The position numbers and the translations under genes are program-made. From Naematelia aurantialba (Eukaryota > Basidiomycota > Tremellomycetes > Tremellales > Naemateliaceae), in contig JAKFAO010000005.1 of the NCBI GenBank assembly GCA_021527695.1, forward strand, positions 1,612,001-1,676,000: a stretch of DNA of 64,000 nt. Reading direction: 5' to 3'. This document shows positions 29,818 through 32,833 of this stretch, in pieces. Positions within the stretch are counted from its first letter, which is position 1; each line of letters begins with the position of its first letter. The notes below the pieces were generated by a model. The model saw only the letters and a program-made list of their open reading frames with translations, had not been told where the DNA came from and searched no databases.

Positions 29818-31039
29818 ATGCCGCAGATCATATTCAGGCTGCGCGTCGCCCTCTATACCACCGTCCTTTTTTGCGTCTCCTTCTTCTCCCTTCTCATCGC
29901 ATTGATCGCTACTCTCCTCGGCAAGCGGCTCAACACTAATTACTATGTTGCGCGGATATTCTTGCACACCGCTGGACCCTTACTGGGATGGAAATTCGAG
30001 GTGGAAGGGGAGGAGCATCTCTGGAATCTGGAGGACCTGGGCGACGGCCAGAAGCGGAGCTCGGTAATCATAGGCAATCACCAAAGGTTCGTGTCGAGTC
30101 GGGATCTGTGCCTGTAGCTCTAGAGCGAGAGATCTGCCCCCAACTGACCCACTCAGTTTTGTCGATATTCTATATCTCGGCCGCATATTCCCCAAACACG
30201 CAGCCATCATGGCGAAGAAGGAGATCAAGTGGATCCCTGGACTAGGCTGGTGGAGTGAGTTACAGACTGACTCGGGCCGAAGCACCACCTGACATAGCAG
30301 TGATGATGTCCGGAACGGTCTTCATCAATAGGGGTAATAATAAGAGTGCCATCGCTAGCATGGGTCAGGCCGGCGAGGATATGAAGCGCAACAGAGTCAG
30401 TAGCGGCGAATCCTCGGGCAGACGAATGCTAGCTGATTCTCGAAGATATCCTTATGGATCTTCCCGGAGGGTACGAGGCATCTGTCGTCAGAACCCGATC
30501 TCTTGCCCTTCAAGAAGGGCGCGTTTTATCTTGCTGTTCAAGGTCAGCTGGCCGTGTGTCAAGCTGCCTGCAAAGCTGATATTCGAAGCCGGTGTGCCGA
30601 TCGTCCCAGTGATCTGCGAGAATTATCATCACCTCTACGACGGAAGGACGCGCTTCCATTCGGGGACGCTGCGCATCAAAGGTCAGCCGCTCGTTCTCTC
30701 CTTGTGTTTGCATATTGATTCCTCCTAGTGCTCCCGCCGATATCGACCATCGGCCTGACGGCGTCAGACGTTCCGTCTCTGATGGAGAAGACGCGAGCCC
30801 ACATGCTCCGAGCGCTACGCGCGCTATCTGATCCATCCGAGTCTGACTCGCGGATGCCGTCGCCTACACCGCTCTTGCTAAATCAGCCAGACCGCTCCGA
30901 TGGATACGGTACGGCGGAAGAGGAACAAGCAGTGGAAGAGGTCATCTCGGCTACGGGCGACGCTTCAGAAGCAGAGCTCCAGGGTGCGGTGGTTGGAGTC
31001 AAGGGCGACAAGCCTGACGGCAAGTTGTCGATCGCGTGA
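29818..31039 (+). CDS. SLC1: 1-acyl-sn-glycerol-3-phosphate acyltransferase (LPAAT, Slc1 type)
   Basis: Exons 29818-30086, 30157-30254, 30301-30395, 30446-30542, 30589-30681 and 30729-31039 give 320 residues ending at TGA 31037-31039. An N-terminal membrane segment ([20 protein letters not shown]) precedes the acyltransferase motifs. Motif [16 protein letters not shown], has the His-x4-Asp dyad and is completed by the first splice. Then come [12 protein letters not shown], motif [13 protein letters not shown] and motif [15 protein letters not shown]. The enzyme makes phosphatidic acid from lysophosphatidic acid in the ER. The last 65 residues are a charged tail ([20 protein letters not shown]). 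The stop codon overlaps a GTGAGC donor at 31036; if that intron is removed, the frame continues into PIG-A (see findings). Confidence 0.92.
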
Positions 31040-31052
31040 GCCTTATGCTCGG

Positions 31053-32833
31053 ATGCACTTTCTGGGCATGCATGGCTTATATTGTTCGCTCTCCAGTTTG
31101 GTGTCGGATTTCTTTCTGCCCGTCGTAGGCGGTGTCGAAGGTCACATTTATTCCCTCGGACTGACTCTGCAGTCCCGCGGCCACCGAGTGCGTCAGATGC
31201 GCCGCCACACATTCATGCTAACGAGCAATCCAGGTGGTAGTGATAACGCACCATCATGGCGACCGCAAAGGTGTTCGCTATCTGTCCGGCCTCAAAGTAT
31301 ACCATTTGCCAATCTTGCCGATCGCGTCGCAGGCGACCCTCCCGAATTTCCTGCTCTTCCTGCCGTACATCCGAAACATCCTGCTCCGCGAGCGGGTCGA
31401 CCTCGTCCATGGCCATGGGTCGTTGTCGTCCCTCGCCCACGAGGCGATCTACCATGCCCCTCTGTTAGGCATCAAAACGGTGTTTACCGACCATAGCTTG
31501 TTTGGTTTCGGCGATGCCGTGGGTATCCTGACCAACAAGCTGTTGGCAGGAGCATTGCGTAACTGCGACGCTGTGGTATGCGTCTCGAACACGGGGTGTG
31601 TCGTCTCTCATCAGTTTATCCGGTCGTGAAGCTAAGAGCGCAGCCGGGAGAATACTGTTCTACGCGCTGAGATTGAGCCAGAACGGGTGTCTGTCATCCC
31701 CAACGCACTGGTCCCAGAACAATTTACCCCTTCCCCCCCCGTCGCACCTAGCGATGAGAGTGAGCTTTCCATTCTCATACTGATATACTACCTGACAAAT
31801 GTAACAGTCACCATCGTTGTTGTTTCGCGATTGGTGTACCGAAAGGGGATTGATCTCCTCGTGGCATGTGCACCGCAAATATGTGCCATCTTTCCTGAAG
31901 TCCGGTTCCTCGTGGGTGGGGACGGACCGAAGATGGTCGACCTCGAGCAAATGAGGGAGAAGTACCAGCTCCAAGATCGGATCACCCTTCTCGGCTCTGT
32001 TCCCCCTTCCGCCGTCCGAGACGTGGGTCTCGCCCCAACTCGACTGTGCTGTTGTTGCTGAACATGTCGTTTGATAGGTGCTTGTAAAGGGCCAGATATA
32101 CCTCAACACGTCTCTGACCGAGGCATTTGGGATCTCGATCATCGAAGCTGCGTCTACCGGTCTGTTTGTGGTCAGTACACGGGTCGGGGGTGTGCCAGAG
32201 ATCCTGCCAGAGGACATGATCGAGTTTGCCCGTGCCGACGAAGATGGCGCGTGCTGTCTCTTCTCGCTGCTCATCATGATCGCTGACAATGGTATAGACG
32301 TCGTGCGCGCGCTGTCCCATGCGATACGTACCGTCAAATCGCGCCGGCACGACCCGTGGTCAGCTCACGAACGGGTCAAGGGGATGTACTCGTGGTCGGA
32401 CGTCGCGAAACGCACAGAGCGTGTGTATGGACGGGCCATGACCCAACCTCATCGAAACACATTTGACAGACTTGCGAGGTGAGTTCACATCCCAGGCCTG
32501 GCACACTCGAGGTCATGCACCAGACACGACGAGGGGATGCTGGTGATGACGCACGTCTGGGGAATGGTGGTGATTGATACACCTCTGGGAATAGGTTATT
32601 GGCGCTTGGGCCTGTATTTGGGCCGATACTGTGCATCATCATGGCCGTCCAACACTGGTTCTTCTGGGTGCTGGAGTGGTGGTCACCGCAGGATGAGATT
32701 GAGCTCGTCAAGGCGCACTGGTCAAAGGAGACGTTCTGCGAGGTGAGTGACTAGAGTATTGACGTAAGCTCAGAAATTCGCTGACGTATGACGGTGGCAG
32801 CTAGTTGCAAGGGAGCGTCATGGGAACTCGTAG
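31053..32833 (+). CDS. GPI3: PIG-A / Gpi3, catalytic subunit of GPI-GlcNAc transferase
   Basis: The family core starts LVSDFFLPVVGGVEGHIYSL at 31098 and continues VVVITHHHGDRKGVRYLSG, LVHGHGSLSSLAHEAIYHA, TVFTDHSLFGFGDA, RENTVLRAEIEPERVSVIPN, VVSRLVYRKGIDLL, LVGGDGPKMVDLEQMRE and the GT4 motif TSLTEAFGISIIEAASTGL. Near the C-terminus a hydrophobic segment (LLALGPVFGPILCIIMAVQH) anchors it in the ER. It transfers GlcNAc to phosphatidylinositol, the first step of GPI-anchor synthesis. Exons: 31097-31187, 31234-31595, 31644-31759, 31808-32022, 32078-32478, 32595-32742 and 32801-32833. The N-terminus is ambiguous: an ATG at 31053 reads in frame only if the 31036-31096 intron is kept. Splicing gives the more typical SIALVSDFF, fused to the acyltransferase. 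A stretch at about 32249-32296 is in frame but unlike the family and may be an unrecognised intron. Confidence 0.92.

What the first reader, a model, noticed from the sequence alone, without database searches (positions are those of the whole stretch)
30729..31187. Acyltransferase stop codon sits inside a splice donor; splicing fuses LPAAT to PIG-A
Seen directly: the acyltransferase frame ends ATC GCG TGA at 31037-31039. The bases GTGAGC from 31036 form a good donor, and CTCTCCAG at 31089-31096 is a matching acceptor with a CTTAT branch-like site. Removing these 61 nt joins AAG TTG TCG ATC GC to T TTG GTG TCG GAT, giving KLSIALVSDFFLPVVGG. That is the usual PIG-A N-terminus (typically ...IALVSDFF). 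I added the exon lengths: 13 exons total 2325 nt, in frame from 29818 to 32833 (774 residues). Intron retention gives a 320-residue acyltransferase instead. So one locus may yield a stand-alone LPAAT and an LPAAT-PIG-A fusion, two ER steps of lipid and GPI synthesis. No stand-alone PIG-A start other than an intron ATG (31053) or an ATG inside the acyltransferase frame is visible.
Basis: partly seen in the sequence, partly recalled or inferred. Interest (0 to 1): 0.87.

Follow-up and report, generated by a model that had tools for sequence, protein, structure and literature searches.

The report
Ancient acyltransferase–PIG-A fusion gene
In a group of jelly fungi and their yeast relatives, the enzyme that starts building GPI membrane anchors appears to be made as one protein with a lipid-building enzyme fused to its front, and the stop codon that suggested a splicing switch lies at the start of an intron of the anchor enzyme itself.

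Summary
In detail: donor, acceptor, 61-nt intron, peptide KLSIALVSDFF and the 774-residue sum; a further in-frame GC–AG intron (32247–32297) makes 757 residues more likely. The window is Naematelia aurantialba NX-20. The fusion is old: 29 database clusters carry acyltransferase plus PIG-A in one chain across Tremellales and Trichosporonales, while Naganishia and Phaffia of the same class have PIG-A alone. It is the only PIG-A match in this genome. The fused acyltransferase is a paralogue: the genome keeps a separate SLC1, and the fused copies tested form one clade.

The 'switch' is mostly ordinary. The residues before the stop (SIA) already belong to PIG-A's first strand, so the intron lies inside PIG-A and was probably its first. 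Any phase-2 intron starting GTGA gives such a stop; intron 12 does too. Against this, two relatives' database proteins (P0121, P0145) end exactly at the junction although they pass the places of introns 1–5; they may come from transcripts that kept this intron, so retention stays open. No RNA was available. Best reading: a spliced two-enzyme fusion, with possible retention of unknown use, not described in the papers searched.

The parts
29818..31035 (+). Exons 1-6: acyltransferase domain (PF01553) and low-complexity linker; the last residues (SIA) already belong to PIG-A
   Evidence: Exons 29818-30086, 30157-30254, 30301-30395, 30446-30542, 30589-30681, 30729-31035; PF01553 at residues 60-196
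31036..31096 (+). Junction intron, phase 2, GTGAGC...CTCTCCAG, 61 nt; in-frame TGA at 31037 if retained
   Evidence: same peptide junction in relatives
31097..32833 (+). Exons 7-14: PIG-A/Gpi3 glycosyltransferase (PF08288, PF13439, PF00534) and C-terminal hydrophobic segment; stop TAG 32831-32833
   Evidence: Exons 31097-31187, 31234-31595, 31644-31759, 31808-32022, 32078-32246, 32298-32478, 32595-32742, 32801-32833; Pfam
32247..32297 (+).
   Evidence: relatives lack the 17 residues; read-through insertions at the same point in P0040 and P0057
32479..32594 (+). Intron 12, phase 2, GTGAGT: shows the same immediate in-frame TGA (32480), an internal control

Best explanation
This is one gene whose main product is a single two-enzyme protein made by splicing: an AGPAT/SLC1-type lysophosphatidic acid acyltransferase, a low-complexity linker, and PIG-A (Gpi3), the catalytic subunit of the GPI-GlcNAc transferase. 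A second copy of SLC1 was joined in frame to the first exon of PIG-A before Tremellales and Trichosporonales split (inferred from distribution) and has been kept with intact motifs. The 61-nt intron is most likely PIG-A's own first intron (inferred). The stop codon in its donor follows from intron phase and a common donor; some transcripts may keep the intron, but a functional short product is not shown. The fusion probably tethers phosphatidic acid or PI acylation at the ER membrane to the first GPI step (inference, untested).
For: 29 clusters P0001-P0029, in nine genera, have PF01553 and PF08288 in one annotated chain; 28 cover at least 92% of the query, one 74%. One PIG-A match in the whole genome, at this locus. 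None of the other 91 rows listed is from a named Tremellales or Trichosporonales species; Naganishia (Filobasidiales) and Phaffia (Cystofilobasidiales) have PIG-A alone. Tree of 44 proteins (15 of the 30 fused, P0121, 18 stand-alone, 10 outgroup): fused type is one clade, 100/100, apart from stand-alone SLC1; own stand-alone SLC1 on C4. NHQxxxD in 30 of 30, motif II (VFxxR) in 29 of 30, FPEGTR in 27 of 30 (P0022, P0027, P0029 have gaps or garbled stretches there), three PIG-A motifs in 30 of 30. Fused domain about as conserved as SLC1 between the same 11 species: 65.6% against 67.9% mean identity. Stand-alone PIG-A of Naganishia begins MPYNIALVSDFF; in the model of P0001 strand 321-325 is SIAMV.
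Against: No RNA reads or cDNA of this species were available, so splicing of 31036-31096 is inferred. Relatives' fusions are database proteins whose gene models I could not check. P0121 and P0145 end at the junction, while no unnamed fragment crossing it was listed. Four Tremellales names with an SLC1 row (Papiliotrema, Dioszegia, Saitozyma, Uapishka_1) have no PIG-A row among the 120 listed. The junction intron lacks the CTRAY branch-like site that 8 of the other 12 introns have, so it may splice less well. That the intron predates the fusion rests on gene-model artefacts, not on outgroup DNA.
Confidence: 0.8

Rival explanations
1. Regulated intron retention: the locus makes both the fusion and a functional stand-alone acyltransferase of 320 residues.
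For: The retained reading is a complete acyltransferase. P0121 (inside the fused clade, beside Tremella and Naematelia) ends KKHSVA and P0145 (87% identical to the Cutaneotrichosporon fusion P0024) ends GKIALA, both exactly at the junction, with introns 1-5 absent from their frames. P0167, 92% identical to P0145 over 212 residues, breaks off at the place of intron 5, so that intron probably exists in a close relative of P0145. The junction intron has no CTRAY site. Intron retention is common in Cryptococcus (PMC5006051).
Against: The stop follows from phase 2 plus GTGA and also occurs at intron 12. DNA of P0121 and P0145 was not seen; genomic origin in intron-poor species, or for P0121 a contig end, is not excluded. 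A separate SLC1 exists. [quoted passage not shown]
Confidence: 0.14
2. Bicistronic use of the unspliced mRNA: acyltransferase stops at 31037 and PIG-A restarts at ATG 31053, giving MHFLGMHGLYCSLSSLVSDFF and two separate enzymes.
For: ATG 31053 is open and in the PIG-A frame through the intron.
Against: It replaces the conserved SIA of PIG-A's first strand by LSS; restarting after 320 codons is inefficient (recalled); an open stretch of 15 codons is easily chance; no shared start is seen near PIG-A in relatives apart from the Met inside the strand.
Confidence: 0.02
3. Gene-model artefact: two adjacent genes merged by annotation, with PIG-A starting from its own promoter within exon 6.
For: In-frame ATGs in exon 6 (30782, 30803, 30854).
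Against: No space between the genes; the nearest of those Met codons is 63 residues before SDFF and is shared only with N. encephala; fusion models in nine genera; all 30 sequences read continuously from one domain to the other.
Confidence: 0.04

Closest known systems
SLC1/AGPAT lysophosphatidic acid acyltransferase (PF01553, TIGR00530; S. cerevisiae Slc1)
   Same: NHQxxxD and FPEGTR motifs, TIGR00530 above cut-off in the orthologue P0001, sequence match to the solved 1-acyl-sn-glycerol-3-phosphate acyltransferase 5kym
   Different: A paralogue of the species' own SLC1, with an extended linker and PIG-A at its C-terminus
PIG-A / Gpi3 / Spt14, GPI-GlcNAc transferase catalytic subunit
   Same: PF08288 and GT4 domains, SDFF...GGVE, TDHSLF and EAFGISxxE motifs
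   Different: No start of its own is evident; carries an acyltransferase domain at the N-terminus; not fused to it in Naganishia, Phaffia and the Agaricomycetes listed
Fungal intron-retention regulation (PMC5006051)
   Same: Retention would put an early stop in the message
   Different: No retention data for this gene; described there as control of expression rather than as production of second proteins

Membership tests
AGPAT/LPAAT (SLC1-type) | Acyltransferase domain above curated cut-off | tested here: met
   PF01553 117.8 bits against 23 for the window protein; TIGR00530 119.8 against 102.95 for P0001
AGPAT/LPAAT (SLC1-type) | HX4D and EGTR catalytic motifs | tested here: met
   NHQSFVD and FPEGTR in the window; 30 of 30 and 27 of 30 across fusions
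AGPAT/LPAAT (SLC1-type) | Acylates lyso-PA (or lyso-PI) | not testable with these tools
   Needs enzyme assay
PIG-A/Gpi3 | PIGA domain and GT4 fold | tested here: met
   PF08288 130.4 bits against 27; structural matches of the P0001 model to GT4 enzymes
PIG-A/Gpi3 | Conserved N-terminal strand xIA[LM][VI]SDFF | tested here: met
   Only when the 61-nt intron is removed
PIG-A/Gpi3 | Assembly with the other GPI-GlcNAc transferase subunits | not tested
   -
Alternative splicing that yields two functional proteins | Both transcript forms present at useful levels | tested here: inconclusive
   No RNA data; two database proteins (P0121, P0145) end at the junction, origin unknown
Alternative splicing that yields two functional proteins | Stop site kept beyond what intron phase explains | tested here: inconclusive
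   Same stop at intron 12 and GTGA in 5 of 13 donors explain it, but the frame also ends at the junction in P0121 and P0145, the two other cases found

The most novel reading that the evidence does not exclude
The fused acyltransferase is a dedicated partner of the GPI pathway: it makes or remodels the phosphatidic acid or phosphatidylinositol used by the attached PIG-A, so that these fungi choose the acyl chains of GPI precursors at the first step, and retention of the junction intron could uncouple the two. Yeast Slc1 accepts some lyso-PI in vitro and has a cytosolic C-terminus (PMC7613133, passages read), which would suit a cytosolic PIG-A.
Probability: 0.3. Interest if true: 0.75.

Novelty: new variant of a known kind. 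Interest (0 to 1): 0.55.

Why it matters
PIG-A is the catalytic subunit of the first GPI step and an antifungal target (jawsamycin, PMC7341893, passages read). In the named Tremellales and Trichosporonales proteins seen here it comes joined to a lipid acyltransferase, which links supply of its lipid substrate to its own activity in a directly testable way. The database names that I saw mention one half or neither, so both the second SLC1 and the fusion are easily overlooked.

Tried and rejected
Stop-in-donor as a regulatory feature in itself: not needed, because intron 12 shows the same thing and phase explains it. A first try at the extra intron with boundaries 32245–32297 broke the frame and was replaced by 32247–32297. 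Search for cDNA fragments across the junction (rows up to 747 residues): apart from the named fusions P0021, P0010, P0027 and P0029 no row covers more than 74% of the query, so no unnamed crossing fragment was listed. P0145 was missed before and led me to raise the retention rival (0.07 to 0.14) and lower the best explanation (0.9 to 0.8). My pattern for motif III counted 25 of 30; P0013 and P0024 do carry FPEGTR in the alignment, hence 27. My pattern for motif IV matched 22 of 30, being too strict; its two prolines (P190, P193) are invariant. My notebook says 8 of 19 stand-alone PIG-A models start at M[VI]xDFF; recounted it is 7 of 19 (19 rows chosen by hand from the 91). Alignment A2 was not used. 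AlphaFold model of P0001: mean pLDDT 65, low in much of the acyltransferase domain, so used only for the first PIG-A strand (block 321-330: 84) and a fold search whose 50 rows shown are glycosyltransferases or other sugar-nucleotide enzymes, nothing on the acyltransferase. Literature: searches listed no paper that I could see naming the fusion; only listings, and passages of those few papers named here, were read; the library is open-licence PubMed Central only. Genomic DNA of relatives could not be had: the genome has no relatives in the collection and metagenome scans are capped at zero.

Full report
Identity. The window's contig is 1,814,705 bases long and another of this genome 2,546,384; these are the N50 and the longest contig of N. 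aurantialba NX-20, which has 15 contigs (PMC8777972, passages read). The totals differ slightly: 20,997,016 here, 20,998,359 in the paper. N. aurantialba is in Tremellales.

The observation. All stated coordinates check out, as does the sum of 2325 nt and 774 residues. A 51-nt GC–AG intron at 32247–32297 is probably also removed: the 17 residues it would encode are absent from the 29 database fusions, and the unspliced-looking fragments P0040 and P0057 carry an insertion at this point where P0029 has none. The likely protein is 757 residues from 14 exons. Pfam finds an acyltransferase at 60–196 and glycosyltransferase/PIG-A domains from 330.

The fusion is shared. A search with the 774-residue protein gave 29 clusters carrying both domains, from Naematelia encephala (84% identity), Kwoniella, Tremella mesenterica, Kockovaella, Cryptococcus, Cryptotrichosporon, Cutaneotrichosporon, Vanrija and Trichosporon. 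The other 91 of the 120 rows listed have PIG-A without the acyltransferase domain; they include Naganishia and Phaffia, from two other orders of Tremellomycetes, and many Agaricomycetes (orders of Vanrija, Cryptotrichosporon and Kockovaella; the rest recalled). Four Tremellales names with an SLC1 row gave no PIG-A row, so the survey is incomplete. A whole-genome search with PF08288 gave one match, at this locus, so as far as that search sees the cell's PIG-A comes from here.

A paralogue, not the only acyltransferase. PF01553 matches two other places. The one on C4 is the stand-alone SLC1: pieces 53–87% identical to the N. encephala protein P0133. In a tree of 44 proteins, 16 of fused type (15 of the 30 fused plus P0121) form one clade (100/100) and 18 stand-alone SLC1 of Tremellales and Trichosporonales another (100/99). 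The tree is rooted at the midpoint and Phaffia is a long branch, so the time of the duplication is unsure. Between the same 11 species the fused domain averages 65.6% identity and SLC1 67.9% over 258 columns (55 pairs; the fused domain is higher in 20), so constraint is similar.

What the stop codon is. Stand-alone PIG-A of Naganishia begins MPYNIALVSDFF. The window's spliced reading is KLSIALVSDFF. In the model of the N. encephala fusion the first PIG-A strand is residues 321–325, SIAMV. So the codons just before the donor are PIG-A, not acyltransferase, and the intron splits PIG-A's first strand. Seven of 19 stand-alone PIG-A models that I looked at begin exactly at M[VI]xDFF, as expected if annotators miss a tiny first exon; P0029 has five extra residues LIEKR and the fragment P0114 has LIETR at this point, which read like the end of an intron. 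Both suggest that the intron is old and PIG-A's own; neither is proof. A phase-2 intron beginning GTGA must give an in-frame TGA if kept; intron 12 of this gene does so as well.

Could both products exist? The retained reading gives 320 residues. P0121 (361 residues, 1124-nt JGI contig) lies in the fused clade and ends KKHSVA. P0145 (310 residues, 1430-nt contig of source 'lgn') is 87% identical to the Cutaneotrichosporon fusion P0024 and ends GKIALA. Both ends are exactly the junction, and both frames pass the places of introns 1–5. P0167, 92% identical to P0145 over 212 residues, breaks off at the place of intron 5, so that intron probably exists in a close relative. The junction intron lacks the CTRAY site that 8 of the other 12 introns have. 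In Cryptococcus intron retention is frequent and mostly independent of nonsense-mediated decay, and alternative splicing is judged not to diversify the proteome efficiently (PMC5006051, abstract and passages). A bicistronic reading restarting at ATG 31053 is open but loses the conserved SIA.

No separate PIG-A start. In the window the nearest in-frame Met before SDFF is 63 residues upstream. In the 29 relatives a Met sits two residues before SDFF (or TDFF), inside the strand; other linker Mets are not at one shared position. The window has Leu there.

Function. The acyltransferase motifs I to III are present in 27–30 of 30 and the PIG-A motifs in 30 of 30. In yeast, Slc1 has a cytosolic C-terminus with motif I reported on the lumenal side, and takes some lyso-PI in vitro (PMC7613133, passages read); PIG-A's catalytic domain is cytosolic (recalled). 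The geometry therefore allows the fusion. A coupling of lipid acylation to the first GPI step is inference.

Literature. Six searches of open-licence papers listed none that I recognised as describing this fusion. The jawsamycin paper tests Cryptococcus but its main text does not contain the word acyltransferase (passages read).

Noticed in passing
window 32247-32297: Probable GC-AG intron, in frame (51 nt), that models using only GT donors will keep as 17 extra residues.
   Followed up: yes
window 27888-29458, minus strand: Open frames resembling a V-ATPase subunit a gene (name recalled) on the opposite strand just upstream of the fusion gene.
   Followed up: no
L004 (C1:995340-998513): A second, more distant acyltransferase of the PF01553 family in the same genome.
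   Followed up: no
P0145 and P0121 (database proteins): Two proteins of different lineages end exactly at the acyltransferase-PIG-A junction; the DNA behind them would settle whether the junction intron is kept in transcripts.
   Followed up: partly
linkers of the fused proteins (alignment A1): The linker is variable in length (47-112 residues in 11 species as cut), but many Tremellales copies keep an acidic stretch like AVEDAVGEEEA of unknown role.
   Followed up: partly
P0033, P0084, P0103: PIG-A models joined to other domains in Grifola (PF02133) and Tulasnella (PF04615); may be annotation merges or other fusions.
   Followed up: no
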